The notes beneath the pieces were generated by a model. That model had not been told where the DNA came from. It saw only the letters and a program-made list of their open reading frames with translations, and did not search any database. Position numbers and translations under genes: made by a program. Shown here piece after piece: positions 14,510-57,600 of a DNA stretch of 64,000 bases (position 1 is the stretch's first letter; every line of letters begins with the position of its first letter). Origin of the DNA: Gonatopus flavifemur (Eukaryota; Arthropoda; Insecta; Hymenoptera; Dryinidae); the NCBI GenBank assembly GCA_018340375.1, contig JAFFJZ010000001.1, positions 55,048,001 through 55,112,000 of the forward strand, written 5' to 3'.

Positions 14510-16195
14510 CAGAGCAGGATTAACGCATGGGCCTGACTAGGCCCGTGCCCAGGGCCCCGAACGGTTGGGGGGCCCCCATCAATCGAATGACAAAAATATG
14601 GATTTTTCTGTCTAGTGGACAGAATTTGATAATTACGAAGAATTAACAAAGGAATTATCTAAAAACGAAAACTATCAAGACTATAATAAGCGTGTAAAAA
14701 CAATTAGTACACGACTTTCTTTTTCTGACTCATGTACAGATAATATTACTCTAGAAGGTGAAAATAAATTCAAGATCGAAGTTTTTATCCCTATAATCGA
14801 TAAACTGTCAGCTGAATTAACACGTAGGAGTGAAGAATATAGAAAGATATATGATACATTCGTATTCATTTTAAATATTGAAAATATGAACGATGATGCT
14901 ATAAAAATGAATTGTGAAAAGCTTTGTGAAATGTACTCTCATGATTTCGACGAATCTTGCATAGTATGTGAGTTCATACATTTCAAATTCTATTTAATTA
15001 ACAAATTAACAGATGGGAAACTGAAAGAATCGAAAAAATCGATAAGAAAGATTTATAAGCTATTATATATTGATGATAAAGCAACAGTTTTCCCAAATGT
15101 AGAAATAGGCATAAGAATATTTTCAACTATATTACCTACGAATGTTAGCGGTGAGAGATCGTTTTCCCGATTGGCTTTGATAAAAGATGAGCAATGAGCA
15201 TAGAAGTACTGTGACTCAAAAAACACCTGACGAATACAGTGTAATGTGTATAGAAAATGATTAATTACATTCTATCAACTTTGACGAAATAATCGACGAA
15301 TTCGTATCACAAAAAATAAGGCGAAAATGTATTTAATATTTTATTTGAATAAATTATTACTGTTCAGTAATTGATTTCTCATTTCTATTAATTTCTAAAT
15401 ATAACAGATATGTAAAAAAATGCGGCTAAGTGTAGTCTTTTCATGTACAGCAATTTAAGGGGTATATACAGGGGCTTATACCCAGTTGTAAGGTCGAAAA
15501 ACGGCGCTCTTTTAAAAATTTTTTCCTGGAAGGGATTTTATTTGACAAATACAAGAAGCAATGATACATGTAGGAGTAACTTTTAACTTAACATCAACAC
15601 TTTTTATTTCCAAAAATATTAGGTTGAATTGCTCTTGCAGACGATCTCCTGGGGGTCCTTTAAAAAAAGGGTGCTCTGGAGGTGAGCACGACATCTCCAG
15701 TTTGGGTTATTTAAAATGAAAAAGTCAAATTCTGTTAGTGGATAGATGAATCCAGGTATGTATTGATCGAAGGAATAGTCGAAATTTTCATTTTTGACAA
15801 AATGGCGGCTTCAAAAAGCAAGAAGTCCGATTTTGGATCAACATTTTTTCGTGAAATTATTTTTAAAAAATATGAATTATTATCAGAAATCTTATTCCTA
15901 TGATCAGTACCTGGAAAATATGTCTGAGAAGGTTATGTTGAAATTTCAGACCGATCAGTTGAGCCGTTTTGAAGAAATTACGCTCACCGACTTTGAAAAT
16001 GCAGTTTTGAGGAAAACGCGTTCCAAGTTCCAAAATCTCATTACGCATAGTAGAAAATTGTTCACAAATAATGTCCTTGTAACTTGGAGAATATTTGTTG
16101 GATTGACTTGAAATTTTCTGAGTGTATACTTCAATACAAGGGGGCTCGATGATCATGATGGGCCCAGAGCCCCCCAAATGCTTAATCCGGCTCTG
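14510..16195 (+). mobile_element. decayed hAT transposon with exact 8-bp target duplication
   Basis: Direct repeats TACGGATC at 14502-14509 and 16196-16203 bound a 1,686-bp element. The ends are imperfect inverted repeats: CAGAGCAGGATTAA on the left and TTAATCCGGCTCTG on the right, each next to a GGGCCC and GGGGGGCC block. Inside lies a broken transposase of the ZMYM1-like hAT type (14616-15334). The remainder, about 15335-16140, has no recognisable protein. The intact duplication with a dead reading frame means a single insertion that has since decayed. Confidence 0.9.
14616..15334 (+). pseudogene. hAT-type transposase remnant (ZMYM1-like, C-terminal dimerisation region)
   Basis: One frame is open from just after a TAG at 14613 to the TGA at 15195-15197. 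It reads through charged helical sequence to FPNVEIGIRIFSTILP and SGERSFSRLALIKDEQ, the recognisable C-terminal block of hAT transposases related to ZMYM1 and TTF-type proteins, normally the dimerisation region. After the TGA the family sequence resumes in a shifted frame (EHRSTVTQ, then SVMCIEND, a stop, and NFDEIIDEFVSQKIRRKCI), so there is at least one frameshift and one further stop. The N-terminal zinc finger and most of the RNase-H-like core are missing. It is not functional and is bounded by the element described for 14510-16195. Confidence 0.85.
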
Positions 16196-30604: not shown

Positions 30605-30744
30605 ACTGCATTGAACTTAATATCATACTGGAATGAGCACTCTCCGCTTTCTCTATAGTATCGGCCGGTCAGAGGGAGAGATCAATATGTTGGGAGATGG
30701 TATCTGCTTTTAATATATGTATTTTAAAGAGAGAAAGTGAAATG

Positions 30745-32255
30745 TAAATTGGGTGAGACTACTCTTGGTGTACCGTGAGTGTAAATTCGGTGTGAAATGG
30801 GTAGAAATTCGGTATATCCGTATTCCAACTGGGGATTGGTTGGATGGTTTTCTGGTGCCCCCCCCCCCCCAGTGAAACAGCTTCCGGTATTTTCTCAGTG
30901 AAAATAGAGTGTCAATTCGGTGGGAACTCGGTGTATCGGTACCCAACCATAGGATGCTGGAGGTTGTTTGTTGGTGTAAATTGAGTGAGACTGCTCTTGG
31001 TGTACCGTGAGTGTAAGTGTGGTGTGCATTCGGTAGAAATTCGGTGTACCCGTATTTCGACTGGGAATTGGTTGGGCGGTTAATTTGATGGCAACTCGGA
31101 TTATCGGTACCCGACCGCAAAATACTGGCGCTGGCTTTTCGGTGTAAATTGGGGGAGATAGCTCTCGGTGTACTGTGGGTGTAAATTCGGTATGAATTTG
31201 GTAGAAGTTCAGTGCATCCGTGGTCCGACTGATTGGTTGGGTGGTTTTTCAGTGTACCCCGAGTGGAAAATGTTCAGGGGTTTTTGGAGGGAAAATTGAG
31301 TGTTAATTCGGTGGAAAATCAGTGTATTGGTACCCATCTACAAAATACTGGAGATTGTTTGTCGGTGTAAATCGGGTGAGATGGCTCTCGGCGTACTGTG
31401 GGTGTAAATTTGGTGTGAATCCGGTAGAAATTCGGTGCAACCGAATGCCGACTGGGGATTCGTTGGGTGGTTTCTCGGCGTACCCCGAGTTAGACGGGTG
31501 TAGGCGTTTTTCTTTCAGTGAAAATTGAGTGTTATTTGATGGAAAGCCGGTGTATCGGTTCCAATCCAGTGGACACTCGATGTTCCGGTATCCAACCACA
31601 AAATACTGGAGGTTGTTTTTTGGTGTGAATCGGGTGAGATAGCTCTCGGTATACTGTGAGTGTAAATTCGGTGTGAATTCGGTGACCTATGTTTCGATTC
31701 ACATCAAGTAGAGATGTTTTCCGGTGTAAACAAAGTGGAATTATGGTGTATACTCTTTATTTTTCCGATTTCTTGTTGATGTACGATGAGTTGATATTGA
31801 GTGTGGGTTGGGTGTTGATTCAGTGGGATTTCGGTGTACCTGTGTTTTGATTCAAATCATCTGCACAGATCTTTTGTCGTGAACCAGGTGAAATTGGGTG
31901 GATATTTCCTACTTTCCGAATCTTCTGTTTGGTGTTCGCTCAGTGGAGATTCAGTGTAAAATGGGTGTGAATTCAGTGGGAATTCGGTGTACCTATGTTC
32001 CGATTGACATCAAGTACGGATGCTTCTCGGTGTAAACAAGATGAAATTATGGTGTATACTCTTCATTTCTTGGATTTCTTATTGGTGTACGATGGGTAAA
32101 AATTGAGTGTGGATTTGGTGTAACTGTTGAGTGTAAAAAATTCACAAGTACACCGTGTTTTCAGGGTGTAAATTCGCCGAAATACCGAAATACCTCCGAC
32201 TTTACACTCAATTTACACTTACACCCCATTTACACCAAAAAAAAACAGTGTAACG
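30745..32255. repeat. GGTGTA-rich degenerate tandem array
   Basis: About 1.5 kb saturated with GGTGTA, GGTGAGA and TTCGGTGTGAA words. Higher-order units recur: the GTGAGA plus GCTCTCGGTGTAC block starts near 30753, 30985, 31151, 31376 and 31634 (spacing about 170-260 bp). A second unit type (GGTGTAAAC...ATTATGGTGTATACTCTT) occurs near 31720 and 32028. A C13 run lies at 30858-30870. Open frames on the minus strand are by-products. Confidence 0.8.
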
Positions 32256-32756: not shown

Positions 32757-33281
32757 CTTAGAGCATATACTACTGGAGCGAGCTAAGGTTACGGAGAAGT
32801 GTGGTCAGTTTGTATTAAAGATAGAATGAGAATTCCGACTTTTAGGCAGTGCTATCTTTGTTTAAATCTCATTGGATAAAAAGAGAGACAACTGCCTATA
32901 ATTCGGATCTCTCTCTCTCTCTCTATCAATTCAACCACACTTATGTCTATTGAAATCATAGGCAATGCTCGCTCCAGTAGTATACCTTGATAACACACGA
33001 AGAATCCTTTCTCAAAAACAAGAATGAAATTCTTCAAGAACTCTTATCGAACTAATGAATTCATAAAGAGCTCTGGAGGGGTTCAATGTTTGGGACATTA
33101 ACGAGTTCTTTGAGAATGCTGAAAATATTGTTTTAATACTCTCAAAGAACTCGTTAATGTCCCAAAAATTGAACTCTTCCAGACTCCTTTACGAATTCAT
33201 TAGTTCGAAAAGAGTTCTTGAAGAATTCTATTCTTGTTTTTGAAAAAGAATTCTTCGTGTGTTATCTGGGTATGCTCTAAG
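32757..33281. mobile_element. palindromic element split by a later insertion
   Basis: The left arm CTTAGAGCATATACTACTGG (continuing to AGCGAGC at 32782) matches a right arm that is interrupted. GCTCGCTCCAGTAGTATA ends at 32984, and the rest, TATGCTCTAAG, resumes at 33271. Removing 32985-33270 and one TA restores the arm exactly. Confidence 0.8.
32985..33270. mobile_element. foldback family E, copy 1, TA duplication
   Basis: Starts CCTTGATAACACACGAAGAAT and ends ATTCTTCGTGTGTTATCTGGG, with TA on each side. The arms include GAGTTCTTTGAGAATG and AACTCGTTAATGTCCCAA. A second copy lies at 42772-43049. Confidence 0.85.
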
Positions 33282-33357
33282 GCACACCCAATCGCACCTC
33301 TCTCTTTGTCCACGCGATTGCATTGCCACGCTCACTCCAGTATTACCTCGGGTACTC

Positions 33358-33470
33358 ATGCTAGCGACTGTCGCGCGCGACATCATTAGAAGAAAGAAGA
33401 GATCCGAGTTGAAAAAAACATCTTCCCTCTTTTTTCTTCTAATTATGTCACGCGCAACAGTCGCTGGCAT
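33358..33470. mobile_element. short palindromic element
   Basis: ATGCTAGCGACTGTCGCGCG (33358 on) pairs with CGCGCAACAGTCGCTGGCAT (to 33470). TTAGAAGAAA and TTTCTTCTAA extend the arms to about 38 bp. Confidence 0.75.
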
Positions 33471-33497
33471 AAGTCTCCGGCCTTAGACTCAATGGGT

Positions 33498-33651
33498 GTT
33501 TCCGACAGCTGCTGCACACAGTGTGCACATTGCTCGAAACGGTGCTCAATTCAGTTCATGCTGTCATTTGATTGGTCCGAAATAAAAATTTTTGAGAATT
33601 GAGCACCGCTTCGCGCACTGTGCACGCTGTGCAGCAGCTGTCGGAAACGAC
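33498..33651. mobile_element. palindromic MITE with 8-bp flanking repeat
   Basis: GTTTCCGACAGCTGCTGCAC on the left is mirrored by GTGCAGCAGCTGTCGGAAAC on the right. CAATGGGT is directly repeated at 33490-33497 and 33652-33659. The 8-bp duplication suggests a hAT-type MITE. Confidence 0.75.
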
Positions 33652-34111
33652 CAATGGGTCTGCCCCTTTATAACACTCCATCATCCAATGACCGACCCTG
33701 ATGAACGAATTTTTTGTAAATGCACCTTAACGTATAGTTGCGGTCAATGATTCTTAATTTTTTTTGCACACTCCATCAAGAACCTTGAGAAAGTAGTGTG
33801 ACAATAAACAACAAATCCGTTTTTATACTCACTAAATGTTTTTTTTATTTTTCTCAATATATGGCCGAGAATAATACCTCAAGTGCCTTGGCTGAAGTCG
33901 ATCGGTGTTGTTTTGATTTTTATTCGTGTTTTTTTCCCATGTTTTTCCAGAAAATAGAATACATAAAAAACGATATGAAGTTTGTAGTGTCATTTTTTTA
34001 TAAATGAATCTCTCGTAGGATCAGCCTTCGCGGAAGGCAGTCATGTAATAATTTCCCCTTCATTTCACTACAATTTATCAAAAAAACCTGTTATTATTCA
34101 CATCAGCTAAA

Positions 34112-37100
34112 ATGGATTCTGCTGGCCAAAGTCAAAATCAAGTAAACAGTGGAGTTGTTGATAGTTCTGAAACCAAAGGAAGGTCCATATCTGATTATTA
34201 TCAATGTTTATTCATTTTCACAATTTTATATTATTTCAAAAGTCACGATTCTTTGTTTTTTCATATTACTACATAAGTAGCTCTATAGTTGTTACAAGAA
34301 TCAGATATATCAATACAAATTCACATTTGACAAGAAAATGAATCATTGTTCTGATTAAAATCATCAACTATGTTTTTCAAAAATTTGCTTATGAACTTTA
34401 TGATCAATTATCATAATTTGATCAGCATAGACCTTATCCTATCTACGCAAGTGAAGTCTTACATCTAAAAATGAAAAAAATGTCTGTGATAAATTTGTTA
34501 ACTATCGAGTAATCCTAAAAGACAGTTCAGAGTTATGTCATATTTGTGCGCAGAAATATTGTAACTGCAAATATATGCATTGGTTCAAATTCCAATCACT
34601 CACAATGGATACATATTACAACTATAGACCACTTTTCAAGATCAAAGAAAATTGAATTGTCTTTCAAGAATAAATTTTTATGTAATTGAATATTAAAGTA
34701 GAATATTCTTTTAATTTCAATTTTATTGTTTCAGTTGTCTTCTATTGCGATGTGCCAGTCAAAATTCTTTGGATGAGAGTTCACAAAAACATGTGCCTCG
34801 TGAAAGCGGCAGAGACAAACCTCCATACAGAAATCATCATCATACGAATCGAGCTTTCGATGTTATCAATGCAATGAGAAAGTAAATTGAATTTTTTTAA
34901 TAAATCGCCTCATATATGATCACCAACTAATGACCGTTAATAATTAACCCTGTTGATTGAAAATTTCTATTCAATGATCCTCTTTTACGTGTCATAAAAT
35001 ATGAAGTTCGAGTATTCTAATCAAATATACTATTTCAATTCCTCAGAAAAAATTTGTTGTGCGATGTGATTCTGGTAGCCGACGGAGGAATGGAAGTACC
35101 TGCCCATAAAATGGTCTTAGCTGCGTGTAGTCCATACTTTTATGCCATGTTTACCAGTTTCGAAGAACGAGATCAACAAAGAATTACTCTCCAAGGAGTT
35201 GATTATTCTGCTCTAGAATTGTTGGTGGAATATGTGTATACCGCAGAAGTTCACGTAACCGAAGATAACGTACAAGTACTTCTTCCAGCTGCAAATCTCT
35301 TGCAGTTAACTGACGTACGAGATGCGTGCTGTGACTTTTTACAAGCACAACTTCATCCTTCTAATTGTCTTGGGATTCGTGCTTTTGCGGATCTACATGG
35401 ATGTTTAGAACTGTTAACCCACGCAGACAGTTATATAGAACAACACTTTTCGTGAGTTTATCCGCATTATCTTTCTAAATTAAACCTATCATTTTTTTAT
35501 ATGATTCTGAAATTTTGTTTTCTGAACAGAGAAGTGGTAGATGGTGAAGAGTTTTTAACATTAACACCCCAGCAAGTGGCCAAATTGATATGTAGCGATC
35601 GCTTAATGGTTCCTTCGGAAGAAAAAGTTTTTGAATGTGTCATATCTTGGGTTCATCATGACTTAGAAAGCAGACAAACTCACTTAGCCCAATTGATGGA
35701 ACACGTACGATTACCTTTGCTCTCGCAAGAATACCTGGTGCAGAGAGTCGAAGAAGAACCTCTTCTTAAAGCAAATTTACAATGTGAGGCATATTCATGA
35801 TAAAGTTCAATGAACGTTGATGAAACAATATATATTTTTACACATTTTGTATATCATTATTTTCACAGGTAAAGATTACTTAATAGAAGCATTGAAATAC
35901 CATTTACTTAAAGGCGAACAGAAATCTTTGTTCAAATCCCCGCGAATTAAACCCAGACAACCACGAGGATTACCGAAAGTATTACTCGTTGTTGGCGGGC
36001 AAGCCCCAAAAGCTATAAGAAGCGTCGAATGTTATGATTTTAAAGAAGAAAAATGGTATCAAGTATCCGAGTTACCAACGCGTCGTTGTAGAGCAGGTAA
36101 ATATCTATTCAATTCTGTTTTATGAATTATTATACATGTAAATTTGAAATGATCAATGTAATTTCAGGACTTTCAGTGCTTGGAGGTAGAGTTTATGCCG
36201 TAGGGGGTTTTAATGGGTCTTTAAGAGTACGTACCGTTGATATATACGATGCAGCCGCTGATCAGTGGTCCCCTTGTCCAGAAATGGCAGCAAGACGGTC
36301 GACTCTAGGTGTTGCTGTGCTAGGCAATTGTATTTACGCGGTATATATTTCAATTTATTCATTAAGATATGAATTATTCAAAAATTCATAACGTATTGTA
36401 CAATGAAATTGAATTGTCAGGTTGGTGGATTTGATGGGTCCACTGGATTGAATTCCGCTGAGGTTTATGATCCAAGAACTCATGAATGGAGACTGATAGC
36501 TCCCATGTCGACTAGGCGTAGCAGTGTTGGCGTTGGAGTGGTTAAAGGACTTTTGTATGCTGTAAGATATTATTCAAAACGTATCTCAAATAAACAAAAT
36601 TGCAATCCAAGTATCAATTCAAAAGCAAACTCTCTTCAGGTTGGGGGATACGATGGAGCGTCACGACAGTGTCTTTCCAGTGTGGAATGTTATAATCCTG
36701 AAAAAGATCAATGGGAACCAGTACCTGAAATGTCGGCACGTCGTAGTGGTGCTGGCGTAGGTGTTTTAGATGGAATATTATACGCCGTCGGGGGACACGA
36801 CGGGCCTTCGGTTAGAAAGACCGTCGAAGCGTTTAATCCTGATACCAATCAATGGACCCCGGTTAGCGACATGGCTCTTTGTCGTAGAAATGCAGGTAAA
36901 GAATTAATTTTCAATCGATATGGTTTAAAATAATAAGAGTAACGCAATTTAATATTCGTTTATAACTTTCAGGTGTGGTCGCATTGAATGGACTTTTATA
37001 CGTCGTTGGAGGCGATGATGGTTCATCAAGTTTATCATCGGTAGAAGTTTATTCTCCAAGGACCGATACTTGGACAACATTGCCAACTTCCATGGGTATC

Positions 37101-37163
37101 GGTCGTAGTTACGCTGGAGTGGCTATAATCGATAAACCGATGACATCGACAATGACGATGTGA
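34112..37163 (+). CDS. kel: kelch (KLHL2/3-type BTB-BACK-kelch protein), ORF1 up to the in-frame UGA
   Basis: Nine exons: 34112-34182, 34735-34881, 35047-35451, 35530-35783, 35869-36096, 36168-36340, 36421-36561, 36640-36895 and 36973-37163. All junctions are GT-AG and phases agree, giving 621 residues. A BTB domain (about 80-185, LLCDVILVADGG and HKMVLAACSPYF) is followed by BACK (about 190-310, NCLGIRAFAD, EYLVQRVEEE) and six kelch repeats (about 325-615: VVGGQAPK, AVGGFNGS, AVGGFDGS, AVGGYDGA, AVGGHDGP, VVGGDDGS). Order and wording match Drosophila ring-canal kelch and vertebrate KLHL2/3. Such proteins bind cullin-3 through BTB-BACK and recruit substrates or actin through the propeller. 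Exon 1 and its weak GTCCAT donor are the least certain part; the start is the first ATG giving matching phase. The ORF ends at a UGA followed by a long in-frame extension (37164-38543). Confidence 0.93.
37161..37163 (+). promoter_or_regulatory. kel: candidate readthrough (recoded) UGA stop codon
   Basis: Context ACG ATG TGA GGT TTA. UGA is the leakiest stop codon. It follows the end of the last kelch blade (SYAGVAIIDKP plus about 8 residues), where KLHL2/3 homologues end. The bases ATGTGAGG also resemble a 5' splice site (GT at 37160), which is the main competing explanation. Confidence 0.8.
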
Positions 37164-38543
37164 GGTTTACAAGCCGCTGGGCATGTTACTGAACAAAATA
37201 CGGATCCGGGTGTTGACGAATCATCACGAGAAGCCGGGCCCAGCGGTATACAGGTACAAAATTCTGATCAACATCGCGGCGCCGGGGTAGGTGGAGCGGG
37301 AGTAGGAAGTCACGATTGTCAAGGACCACGTTGTGTTTGTCAAAGATACGAAAATGGTGAGTTAGCTGTAGTTGTAATGAATCAAGGAAGAAATCTTAAT
37401 CCGGAGGATAATTATCAAAACATAGCTGGTCGTCCACGAAATTTAGCCAACCGACCGTCTGTGGTGAATATTAATCCTAATTATCAGAATCCAATAGATT
37501 TAATACATAATTATAATCGTAATGGAGGTAACAACGGTAACAGATTACGGCAAGAAGCAGAGGAAAACATATATGAGAGATTAGACAATGACGAAGACGA
37601 TGAAGAAGACGCGGGATTAGCCATCGCACGAAATAATAGAAATCACGATCACACGTATGAAAGAATCGACGATCTACGTTCACGAATTTCTCGAGCACAT
37701 TTTGCCCACGAAATGGAATCAAGAAATTCGGTTCAGTACGATCGCCCGAGGCAAAATATTTATTTAGATCCTTCTCGAATTTGTCCAGTTGATATTTTAG
37801 GTAGACTCGGACGGAATTGTTTCTCCAGTGAAAATATAGCTAGCGCTTCATCTTCTTCCTCTATCAGATCGGGTTATCCTATTTACAATTGCGCAAGATA
37901 TTACGTTTGTCATCGTTGTTACTACTTACGCAACAGAGCACGTTATCAGAATCCTCGGCATTATCAAATGTATCAAACTCCAAGGAATTGTACATGTCCA
38001 TTTTGTCGCGGAGAGTCTCCAGCTTACGTTAAATTACGTTTGCCCGACATTTCGAAAAGAAAAGATTGTCATCATCGGAATGCCATGAATTGTAGTTTTT
38101 GCTCAAAGAAAGGTCTGAATATTCATATGAACAGGAATTTGGATTGGGTTAACAGAATAGGATCTTCGGTCGACAATCCACTTTACGCTACGATTCACAT
38201 TGGTAGAGTGGATCGAGCGTGTTCGAATTCTATTGACTCCTCCGGTCCTTCGACTTCCAATGAACCTTCATCCGTTTGCAGATTGAGTCATCCCGTGGCC
38301 GATAGACGTCGTCACACTTGTGACGATTCTTGCATTAGAAATCCTAGCGGTAGTCTCGCTGGTATCTGTCAATTCGTTGGTCGGTGTGAAAGAACAGAAT
38401 GTAATCATGGGAGATTGCATTTCGTGCATTGGTGGTTCCTCAATAAATGGCTTCCCTCTTGGAATTCTTTCAATTCTGAGAGGAATATCGATGCCGTCCC
38501 TGTTGTGGAAGAACCACAAGAAAGCGACAGCGATGATTATTAA
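37164..38543 (+). CDS. kel: kelch ORF2, in-frame extension reached by UGA readthrough
   Basis: Directly after the UGA the same frame stays open for 459 codons to a TAA at 38541-38543, with no intron needed; UGA decoded as an amino acid would give 1,081 residues. The early part is Gly-, Gln- and Asn-rich; a first in-frame ATG comes only at 37377. Further on are an acidic run (DNDEDDEEDAG), repeated YER motifs (NIYERL, HTYERI), a Ser cluster, then Cys/His-rich blocks (YVCHRCYYLRNRARY, CTCPFCRGES, NCSFCSKKG, TCDDSCIRN, CERTECNHGR) and an acidic tail ending DSDDY. No standard domain is recognised. Drosophila kelch is known to make a long form by suppressing a UGA between ORF1 and ORF2; this layout is the same. 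From memory, the fly ORF2 is longer. A separate downstream gene is unlikely because codons 5' of the ATG are already open and protein-like. Splicing around the stop cannot be excluded from DNA alone. Confidence 0.85.
   Translation, partial: GLQAAGHVTEQNTDPGVDESSREAGPSGIQVQNSDQHRGAGVGGAGVGSHDCQGPRCVCQRYENGELAVVVMNQGRNLNPEDNYQNIAGRPRNLANRPSVVNINPNYQNPIDLIHNYNRNGGNNGNRLRQEAEENIYERLDNDEDDEEDAGLAIARNNRNHDHTYERIDDLRSRISRAHFAHEMESRNSVQYDRPRQNIYLDPSRICPVDILGRLGRNCFSSENIASASSSSSIRSGYPIYNCARYYVCHRCYYLRNRARYQNPRHYQMYQTPRNCTCPFCRGESPAYVKLRLPDISKRKDCHHRNAMNCSFCSKKGLNIHMNRNLDWVNRIGSSVDNPLYATIHIGRVDRACSNSIDSSGPSTSNEPSSVCRLSHPVADRRRHTCDDSCIRNPSGSLAGICQFVGRCERTECNHGRLHFVHWWFLNKWLPSWNSFNSERNIDAVPVVEEPQESDSDDY
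37173..37247 (+). promoter_or_regulatory. kel: predicted RNA stem-loop just 3' of the kelch UGA
   Basis: CCGCTGGGC at 37174-37182 is perfectly complementary to GCCCAGCGG at 37238-37246, and a G-U pair (37173 with 37247) can extend it. The stem starts about ten nucleotides after the stop codon and eight of its nine pairs are G-C. The 55-nt loop holds a further CCGG...CCGG pairing option. Extended 3' stems at this distance are known to stimulate stop-codon readthrough in other RNAs; function here is inferred. Confidence 0.65.
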
Positions 38544-54661: not shown

Positions 54662-57600
54662 ATGGCGAATAAAGTGTGGAGTGCAGAATTATGGAAATCA
54701 TGGGATAAACAAGGAAGAAATGATTTGTAAGTGGTTATCGTGATCAGAAGTGCGTTCGATTAATATTGAATTGATACTCCATATCTACTCTGTGAAATTG
54801 ATGGTTGCAACTTATCTCCCCTTGTTCTCGCTCTTCTGAAGACTTAATTGTGAATTAACAACTGTTTGCAGCCTCAAACTATTCAAGCAGAAATTTAAGG
54901 AAGGCAACCCAACAGGTAAGTTGTTCAACATTAGCTATGCATTCACATTGCATTATGTTCATTCTAACTGTGCTTATAAAATCGGCATCAATGATGTAAT
55001 TCCAGTAATTCATGTACCATAAATTTCATATGCCATAGAATTCTTGAAAATTCGATCTCCGAGTGCTTATTTTTTTATCTATTTCAGAATGGAGACGAGG
55101 ATTATACGAGTTGATATCCAATGGAATCCAAGGACACGTAAAAAAGGAAAGCATAGTTTCGACATTAGGTGAATTGTCGGTAAGGGATGATTGAGTTAAT
55201 TCAAAAATTAGAATTCGATTGATTATACCGTGTCTATTATTCAACATTTCTTCTTTCATTAGAACATCGATGGGGCGATACCATCTGCAATTGTGGATAT
55301 ATTTACATTGATCGACGCCGAAGCCCATAACGACGAGAGAAGTCATTTCTATTACATCGTTAAAGAATCTGAAAAGGTAATGATTCCCTTCATCTTGTAA
55401 GGATTATGTAAATTGAATTTATAATGAAGAACTTTTTTTCAAACAAGCTCATTAACCATACAGCATTCAATGCCGCCCAAACAGAAGGAAATTTAATATA
55501 ATGAATATAATTTCCTACAAAATATGTACCAATAAAAATTTGTGATTTTTATGCATCGGATAACTTGAATTTTCTCACAATGTTTTTATATTTCATATAG
55601 TTTTTGACTGACAGAATATTAAAGGAACGTCTTGAAATTGATACCCTCCAAGATGTAGGAACATTGAAAAATAGGAATTTTCAAACCAAGTTCATCAAAG
55701 TGAAGACCAAATTATAGTATGTATTTATCTTTATTTCTTCTTAATGGTTGATCAATAATTGTCTTTGATATGATTGAAATTTACTAACATTTTGTTCTTC
55801 GAAGAAACATCTTTGACAATTATTCATCAGTTTATAAAATTTCAATTTCTTCAAAGATGCAATTTTGTAGAATCGATGATACAGAAAATTTATCCACTTT
55901 GTAGTTACAAACAAAGGAAATTCAATTTATTCCGTGAGGAAAGTGAAGGATACTCCAAACTCATAGTTGAGTTGAACCAAGAACGTCCAGAAAGTGAAGT
56001 GGCATCTACATTAGAAATCGTTAAATCTCTCATTGGTATGACAATATAATAATTTCTTATATGCTCAAAGTTTTGAGGAAATGTTAAAAATCTCGATTTA
56101 TATCACTTTCAGGTTATTTCAATCTTGACCCTAATAGAGTTTTGGATATCTTGTTAGAAACTTTTGAAAATCGCCCAGAAAATGATGCACTTTTCATTCC
56201 TTTGATTCGTTCTTATATGAGCGATCAACAGGTATTATGTGAAGTTTTAGGTTTCAAATACCGTTCGACGGTCAATGCAACCCCTTTTTCGTTGCAAAAA
56301 GTCACAGCTCTTATGCTGCAACATCAAGTTATTAAATTAGATGATATTTTACCCTGGCTAGTACCAGATGACAAAGTTATCATAAAAGATCATGAACAAG
56401 CTATGAAATTAGCTAAAGAATATGTTCGTAAATTAAGTGTGATATCAACTAAGGATAAAGAAGAAGTGCCGGAAGAGAAAGAAAATCCTCAGGTTTTTAT
56501 TCGAATTTTAAATCATCGATAAATTTCAATGTTTCAACGTCGGGAATAATTTTCTTACTTTTCTTTATACAGGATAAGTATTCGTTGAATCAGAAGTTTG
56601 GATTATGCGAAGCATTACTAGAAGTTGGAGCTTGGGAAGTAGCTCAAAGTTTATTCAATCATTTACCAGATCATTGTTTGACCGATCAAAAACCGATCGC
56701 TTTAGCATTATGTAAAATGATTCATTCGCTCATCGAACCTATTTATAGAAAGTGAGTGTTCTTTAGAATTGCATATTAAATTGAGTTAGATATTATAAAT
56801 GATTTAAATTTTGTAATAATATTTCAGACATTGTATCATATCACCAAAATTGAAAGGACGTAAAGTTCCGCCATTGAAAAGCGCTTTGGCTCCAAAACCA
56901 TTGCAGAATTTAGAAGATTTACACGATCAACTTTTACCTATGCTCATGGTTCTTGGCCCCAATTTACACCATGATCCCATCTTGATGTATAAAATTATGA
57001 GATTATGTCATGCTGCTATAAAGCAATGTCCATTGGATGGAAACAAACAACCGGTGAATAAGAATAATCACCTCTACTATGACGTAATAACGATATTGGA
57101 TGTTGCGTTATTCCCTTCATTGTCGTTTATGGATTGCAATTGTTGCGTGGCGGAAGAAATTTGGAATATTTTAAAACATTATCCATATCAAAATCGTTAT
57201 TGTTTATACGCTCGGTGGAAAAATGATACGCCTTTGCAACACGCTGAACTTCTGCGAAAACGTGCGGATGCTCAGAAGAAAATTAAATCTATTATGAAGA
57301 GAGTGAGCAAAGAAACCATCAAACCTGTTGGCAGGTCCATCGGAAAATTAACACATTCTTCACCCGGTGTTTTATTTGATTATGTTCTTATACAAATTCA
57401 ACTGTATGACAATCTTATAGGTGAGTTCATTTTTTTTTTAGAAGTAGATTAACAATCACTTGTCAACATTTTTCAAGTATCAAAGAATATCCATTTTTAG
57501 AAGAAAAATTTTGTTTGTAGAGCTTATCTTTCTTTGACATAAATGTCAGAATGAATAGTAAATATTCATAAGAGTTATCTTTTATTTTAGAACTCTTAAT

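What the first reader, a model, noticed from the sequence alone, without database searches (positions are those of the whole stretch)
36973..38543. Kelch stop-codon readthrough architecture: UGA followed by 459 in-frame open codons
The last kelch exon runs through a UGA at 37161-37163 and stays open in the same frame to 38543. Drosophila kelch is an established case of UGA suppression giving a long ORF1-ORF2 protein. The same layout here, with ORF2 carrying Cys/His-rich blocks and acidic runs, argues that the extension is real protein and the recoding is conserved between distant insects. This is the most biologically interesting signal in the window.
Basis: partly seen in the sequence, partly recalled or inferred. 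Interest (0 to 1): 0.87.

Follow-up and report, generated by a model that had tools for sequence, protein, structure and literature searches.

The report
Hymenopteran kelch with stop-codon readthrough
An insect kelch gene stops at a UGA but then carries a long conserved second protein-coding part, most likely reached when ribosomes sometimes read through the stop with help from an RNA hairpin just after it, much as reported for fruit-fly kelch.

Summary
The window holds a nine-exon kelch gene (34112-38543, +); ORF1 (621 aa) ends at UGA 37161-37163, seven codons after KLHL2/3 homology ends. The exon then stays open for 459 codons; 0 of 20,000 random sequences did. ORF2 is real protein: 54 relatives were found, the 26 named ones all Hymenoptera. 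Conserved residues precede its first AUG (codon 72), so AUG initiation inside ORF2 cannot make them. A donor-like site overlaps the UGA, but its in-frame acceptors scoring above 3.5 all lie 665 nt or more downstream. A 10-bp stem begins 9 nt after the UGA; 0 of 5,000 synonymous recodings reach its score, which I defined after seeing it. Its arms encode [AST]AG[HQ] and PSG, among the most conserved residues there in the ten sequences that span them. Best reading: programmed UGA readthrough helped by a 3' stem-loop, as in Drosophila kelch. Homology to the fly ORF2 was not found, and no RNA, ribosome or relatives' DNA data were reachable. Known kind; new member.

The parts
34112..34182 (+). kelch exon 1 (first coding ATG)
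   Evidence: gene model
34735..34881 (+). kelch exon 2
   Evidence: protein agrees with P0053/P0054
35047..35451 (+). kelch exon 3, BTB domain and start of BACK
35530..35783 (+). kelch exon 4 (rest of BACK inferred)
35869..36096 (+). kelch exon 5
36168..36340 (+). kelch exon 6, kelch repeat region by homology
36421..36561 (+). kelch exon 7, kelch repeat
36640..36895 (+). kelch exon 8, kelch repeats
36973..37160 (+). 5' part of exon 9: last kelch repeat and end of ORF1
   Evidence: KLHL2/3 homology ends at ORF1 residue 614
37161..37163 (+). UGA stop codon, proposed readthrough site (AUG UGA GGU)
37160..37165 (+). GTGAGG, donor-like sequence overlapping the UGA; scores like real donors of this gene
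37173..37182 (+). stem arm 1 (GCCGCTGGGC), 9 nt after the UGA, encodes AAG and the first base of H
37238..37247 (+). stem arm 2 (GCCCAGCGGT), last base of a Gly codon and PSG; 55 nt between the arms
37164..38543 (+). ORF2: 459 codons and TAA, conserved Cys-rich extension
37311..37367 (+). conserved block HDCQGPRCVCQRYENGELA (codons 50-68), upstream of the first ORF2 Met (codon 72, 37377-37379)

Best explanation
A hymenopteran kelch orthologue makes two proteins by programmed stop-codon readthrough. Most ribosomes stop at UGA 37161 and make the 621-aa BTB-BACK-kelch Cullin3 adaptor. A fraction decode the UGA with a near-cognate tRNA and continue in frame to make a ~1081-aa protein with a 459-residue Cys/His-rich tail. 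A 10-bp GC-rich stem-loop starting 9 nt after the UGA probably raises the readthrough rate. Shown: gene structure by sequence, open frame, conservation of ORF2 as protein in Hymenoptera, the stem as sequence, and its arms coinciding with conserved codons. Inferred: that readthrough happens, that the stem forms and stimulates it, tissue control, and any function of the tail.
For: (1) The UGA sits inside one exon, 7 codons after the end of KLHL2/3 homology. (2) ORF2 has 54 relatives: 50 ORF2-only records and 4 fused ones. Best E is 3.9e-112, and 25 columns are invariant in 51 sequences. (3) Among codons 2-33 after the UGA, codons 5-7, 14, 22, 23 and 26-28 are kept in at least 9 of 10 sequences. 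Block HDCQGPRCVCQRYENGELA precedes the first Met at codon 72. (4) For the donor overlapping the UGA no in-frame acceptor scoring above 3.5 lies before 37829, and for the exon-8 donor none lies in all of ORF2. (5) The stem: 0 of 5,000 synonymous recodings reach its score, and only 5 of 1,046 codon starts, all overlapping this site. MFE z is -2.9, -2.3 and -2.5 against synonymous resampling (10, 32 and 25 of 2,000 as stable). (6) 6 of 8 arm codons against 3 of 24 other codons are conserved in at least 9 of 10 sequences (Fisher p 0.002). 10 of 10 arm pairs could form all 10 base pairs by synonymous choice, against 213 of 20,000 random residue sets. (7) In Drosophila dfr a stem-loop at +10 to +58 drives readthrough by its stability and distance (PMC13170385 passages).
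Against: No RNA, ribosome or peptide data. The base after UGA is G, not the favoured C (PMC5100048 passage). The UGA overlaps a sequence that scores as a splice donor (7.5, real donors 4.6-9.6), and two acceptors in frame with it, at 37829 (7.6) and 38135 (7.8), are about as good as the weakest real one (7.8). Three annotated fusions (P0052, P0053, P0054) skip the UGA by predicted introns. The stem score was defined after the stem was seen. By MFE alone 14 of 1,053 windows of the coding sequence (this site included) fold as well, and 5 of 28 other ORF2 windows reach synonymous z below -2. Relatives' nucleotides were not available, so covariation and conservation of the UGA itself were not tested.
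Confidence: 0.82

Rival explanations
1. Alternative splicing removes the UGA: the GTGAGG donor at 37160, or an upstream site, joins to an acceptor inside ORF2, so no stop is ever read.
For: Donor-like score 7.5, like real donors, and identical from -2 to +6 with the exon-4 donor. In-frame acceptors at 37829 (7.6) and 38135 (7.8) are near the weakest real acceptor, 7.8. Gene models of Cyphomyrmex (P0052), Aphidius (P0053) and Ampulex (P0054) skip the UGA.
Against: In frame with that donor only 37829, 37868 (3.8), 37985 (4.2) and 38135 exceed 3.5, and each would discard at least 221 ORF2 codons that include conserved blocks. Upstream donors in other phases score only 2.2-3.1, and the nearest acceptors in other phases 3.8 and 4.4 (37488, 37737). 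The three models use three different junctions. Two of them drop the last kelch strand, and P0052 also reads 28 residues absent from ORF1 of the window and of P0053 and P0054 between exons 8 and 9, so they look unreliable. The acceptor before EQN that two of them seem to share has no AG in this window (gtt act gaa). Codons just after the UGA are conserved.
Confidence: 0.1
2. ORF2 is a separate gene or cistron translated from its own start, as databases annotate it.
For: The 23 named records are stand-alone proteins, 22 of them called uncharacterized or hypothetical.
Against: First Met in this ORF2 is codon 72, after the conserved RCVCQRYENGEL block. Listed starts differ from record to record. 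ORF2 lies in the kelch exon with no break.
Confidence: 0.04
3. A-to-I editing changes UGA to UGG (Trp) in some mRNAs, so that ORF2 is read without recoding.
For: One unnamed relative (P0031) is listed with Trp at this place. Insect nervous systems edit mRNAs (recalled).
Against: P0031 runs on upstream of the exon without a break, so it looks genomic; its Trp is then either a TGG codon or a TGA called with another code. Nothing here shows editing.
Confidence: 0.03
4. UGA encodes selenocysteine.
For: The codon is UGA, and Sec-type stem-loops occur in SPS genes (PMC4561486 passages).
Against: Honey bee and Nasonia have lost selenoproteins and the ability to make them (PMC2500217 passages). No Rfam family, SECIS included, matches the window at gathering score (that Rfam holds SECIS is recalled).
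Confidence: 0.01

Closest known systems
Drosophila kelch (kel) UGA readthrough (Robinson & Cooley 1997; Hudson et al. 2021: recalled, or seen only as cited in PMC8417969 and PMC13170385)
   Same: Same gene family, same stop codon (recalled for the fly), in-frame ORF2 after a complete kelch protein; a 3' region predicted to form a stem-loop affects readthrough there (passages).
   Different: No sequence match between the two ORF2s was found. ORF2 is 459 codons here, against a longer one in the fly (recalled). Readthrough not measured here.
Drosophila dfr/vvl readthrough stem-loop (PMC13170385, passages)
   Same: Stable stem-loop just 3' of a readthrough stop.
   Different: dfr uses UAG with the stem at +10 to +58; here UGA with the stem from +13 to +87 and 55 nt between the arms.
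Hymenopteran readthrough element (HRE) of SPS1-UGA (PMC4561486, passages)
   Same: UGA readthrough without Sec in Hymenoptera with a nearby RNA structure.
   Different: HRE overlaps the UGA as a three-stem clover, and GGG-UG[C/U] follows the UGA; here GGU-UUA follows and the main stem is wholly downstream.
PhyloCSF readthrough candidates of bumblebees and honeybees (PMC7826183, 851 candidates, passages)
   Same: Conserved coding 3' of a stop in Hymenoptera.
   Different: The gene list is in a supplement that could not be read; kelch does not occur in the main text.

Membership tests
Programmed stop-codon readthrough gene | Long in-frame ORF after the stop, conserved as protein | tested here: met
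Programmed stop-codon readthrough gene | Stop codon itself conserved in relatives | tested here: inconclusive
50 of 54 protein records begin after the stop position; P0031 has Trp there; P0052-P0054 models skip it.
Programmed stop-codon readthrough gene | No splice form or internal start that explains the ORF | tested here: inconclusive
   internal AUG start excluded for the conserved first 71 codons; splicing unlikely by sequence, but no RNA data
Programmed stop-codon readthrough gene | Leaky context (UGA-C) | tested here: not met
   UGA-G; the context is a tendency, not a requirement (PMC5100048 passages)
Programmed stop-codon readthrough gene | Ribosomes or peptides beyond the stop | not testable with these tools
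   no such data held
Drosophila kelch type of readthrough | BTB-BACK-kelch ORF1 followed by UGA and long ORF2 | tested here: met
Drosophila kelch type of readthrough | ORF2 homologous to the fly ORF2 | tested here: inconclusive
   searches returned only Hymenoptera among named hits; word-based searches may miss the fly protein
Drosophila kelch type of readthrough | 3' stem-loop near the stop | tested here: met
   as predicted structure only
Hymenopteran readthrough element (HRE) | GGG-UG[C/U] directly after the UGA | tested here: not met
   GGU-UUA
Selenoprotein | SECIS element in the transcript | tested here: not met
   no Rfam match in the window at gathering score

The most novel reading that the evidence does not exclude
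Hymenoptera from sawflies to ants and bees share a kelch readthrough cassette: UGA, a short spacer and a stem whose two arms are kept codon-against-codon ([AST]AG[HQ] pairing with PSG). A whole family of hymenopteran 'uncharacterized proteins' is really the readthrough tail of kelch.
Probability: 0.6. Interest if true: 0.68.

Novelty: new member of a known kind. Interest (0 to 1): 0.56.

Why it matters
It would extend one of the pioneer animal readthrough genes to Hymenoptera, from sawflies to ants and bees, and name a family of uncharacterized proteins as the tail of a Cullin3 adaptor. It also gives a concrete, testable RNA element, with a predicted spacer and pairing, in which the coding and the structural demand on the same bases can be separated by synonymous changes.

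Tried and rejected
AlphaFold2 of ORF2 with 51 sequences gave mean pLDDT 45.3, so no fold search was made. PDB, Pfam and NCBIfam searches of ORF2 found no family; scanning all 51 members against Pfam gave only matches at E 0.018 or worse in 1 or 2 members each. Scans of viral and prokaryote contigs for DNA of relatives found none (46 and 19 pattern matches, none confirmed), so dN/dS and covariation could not be done. A second hairpin that takes in the UGA (37130-37262 folds at z -4.05) was not pursued: its inner upstream arm codes for residues that differ in P0031 and P0053 and its outer downstream arm for GL, which is GM in most relatives, although its outer upstream arm lies in the conserved DKP. 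P0031's Trp was not used as evidence for a sense codon because its gene caller may read TGA as Trp. I first took P0053 (Aphidius) as a natural loss of both UGA and stem (still so in my notebook). On comparison its GLQEQQQR fits the later LQQ..R stretch of P0038, so it is more simply a gene model that skips the region, and I dropped that claim.
Full report
What is there. The window carries a complete kelch gene on the + strand with nine coding exons and eight GT-AG introns. ORF1 encodes 621 residues with BTB, BACK and kelch repeats. After designed kelch proteins, its best matches in solved structures are Kelch-like proteins 2 and 3, which match up to residue 614, seven residues before the UGA and at the end of those chains. 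ORF1 therefore looks like a complete protein, not a truncated one. The UGA at 37161-37163 lies inside exon 9, and the frame continues for 459 codons to TAA. Chance does not give this: 0 of 20,000 first-order Markov sequences stayed open.

ORF2 is real protein. A search of ORF2 gave 51 relatives among 4963 candidates, best E 3.9e-112. A profile search (7994 candidates, capped) added P0052 and P0053, and a full-length query restricted to its ORF2 part (745 candidates) added P0054. Of these 54 records 26 carry an organism name; by genus all 26 are Hymenoptera (that assignment is my knowledge): ants, bees, wasps, parasitoids and sawflies. Fifty records are ORF2 alone and four are joined to kelch sequence. 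Of the 23 named stand-alone records 22 are called uncharacterized or hypothetical and one a kinase. In 51 aligned sequences 25 columns are invariant, among them H-CDDSCIR and several Cys, and ENIYERLD is nearly so. [quoted passage not shown] This is conservation of protein; codon-level rates need the relatives' DNA.

Why readthrough rather than another route. Internal initiation: the first Met of ORF2 is codon 72, but HDCQGPRCVCQRYENGELA before it is conserved. Splicing: GAT|GTGAGG, which overlaps the UGA, scores 7.5 on a matrix from this gene's eight donors (real 4.6-9.6), so splicing deserved a serious look. Acceptors in frame with it and scoring above 3.5 lie only at 37829 (7.6), 37868 (3.8), 37985 (4.2) and 38135 (7.8; weakest real acceptor 7.8), beyond the first 221 codons of ORF2, and none in frame with the exon-8 donor exceeds 3.5. 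The matrix rests on eight introns, so these scores are rough. A splice form that joins the UGA region to the last part of ORF2 is not excluded, but it could not explain the conserved first half. Three database models skip the UGA, each by a different junction. I read them as gene-finder detours round an in-frame stop, but RNA data could overturn that. Selenocysteine: honey bee and Nasonia lack selenoproteins (PMC2500217, passages), and nothing in Rfam matched the window.

The stem-loop. From 9 nt after the UGA, GCCGCUGGGC (37173-37182) pairs with GCCCAGCGGU (37238-37247): ten pairs, one of them G-U, with 55 nt between the arms; a separate repeat search lists the nine perfect pairs. Energy alone is a modest signal: shuffles give z -2.36, and synonymous resampling gives z -2.9, -2.3 and -2.5 for 30, 33 and 36 codons. 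14 of 1,053 windows along the coding sequence, this site included, fold as well, and 5 of 28 other ORF2 windows fall below synonymous z -2. The stem itself is stronger evidence: a score of pairs plus GC pairs, for a stem beginning 3-15 nt in, was reached by 0 of 5,000 synonymous recodings, and in the whole coding sequence only at 5 of 1,046 codon starts, all overlapping this site. I defined that score after seeing the stem. ORF2 as a whole is AT-rich at third positions (GC3 0.31), so a run of GCC, GGG, GGG, CCC and AGC codons here is unusual.

The arms and the conserved islands coincide. Ten sequences span both arms: the window and nine relatives. The other 45 of 54 relatives do not show arm 1 and were left out. 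In the ten, 6 of 8 arm codons and 3 of 24 other codons among codons 2-33 are conserved in at least 9 (Fisher p 0.002); the three others are D14, R22 and E23. The arms lie codon against codon: Ala/Ser/Thr (NCN) against Gly (GGN), Ala (GCN) against Ser (AGC), Gly (GGN) against Pro (CCN). All ten could form ten pairs by some synonymous choice; random residue sets could in 213 of 20,000. PSG is kept in 20 of 21 sequences that reach that far, the miss being P0053, whose model skips the region (counted). The ten are not independent (five look like sawflies, two are nearly the same bee-like sequence), and residues could be kept for the protein's sake. Only the relatives' DNA can decide.

Comparison with what is known. 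Drosophila kelch is an established readthrough gene, with more readthrough in nervous tissue (PMC8417969 passages), and a region predicted to form a stem-loop affects it (PMC13170385 passages). The key kelch papers were not read: Hudson et al. 2021 is not held and Robinson and Cooley 1997 was seen only in reference lists; what I say of them beyond those passages is recalled. In dfr, stem stability and distance from the stop set the rate. Hymenoptera already have one UGA readthrough case with an RNA element, SPS1-UGA with its HRE (PMC4561486 passages), and 851 readthrough candidates were predicted in bumblebees (PMC7826183 passages); kelch may well be among them. Eight paper searches were made. 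Six held kelch among their terms and one paired readthrough with Hymenoptera. No title listed was on hymenopteran kelch readthrough, but most subscription papers are not held, so this is weak evidence of novelty.

Function of the tail. No family, fold or solved relative was found. The likeliest role is an added docking or metal-binding, largely disordered tail on the Cullin3 adaptor, made in some tissues only. That is inference, by analogy with the fly and from the Cys/His pattern.

Noticed in passing
window 32979-33276: Long inverted repeat (146-nt arms, 87% complementary, 6 nt apart) upstream of kelch, like a foldback element; three more inverted pairs follow at 33349-33661.
   Followed up: partly
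window 56088-57452: Two ORFs match the THO complex subunit 2 N-terminus (Pfam THOC2_N), a second conserved gene in the window.
   Followed up: partly
window 37130-37262: A second predicted hairpin takes in the UGA itself (UAAACC/GGUUUA and ACAUCG/CGAUGU); the whole stretch folds at z -4.05, 1 of 200 shuffles as stable.
   Followed up: partly
window 14616-15197: 193-codon ORF ending in SGERSFSRLALIKDEQ, which recalls the C-terminus of hAT transposases (recalled); Pfam found nothing.
   Followed up: no
window 30710-31686 (-): Two long minus-strand ORFs with recurring motifs of unknown nature; no Pfam match for the first, and no tandem array is reported across them.
   Followed up: partly
protein P0031 (unnamed source): A sawfly-like, apparently genomic record listed with Trp in place of the UGA and otherwise continuous kelch-ORF2; either a natural loss of the stop or a gene call with TGA read as Trp.
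   Followed up: partly
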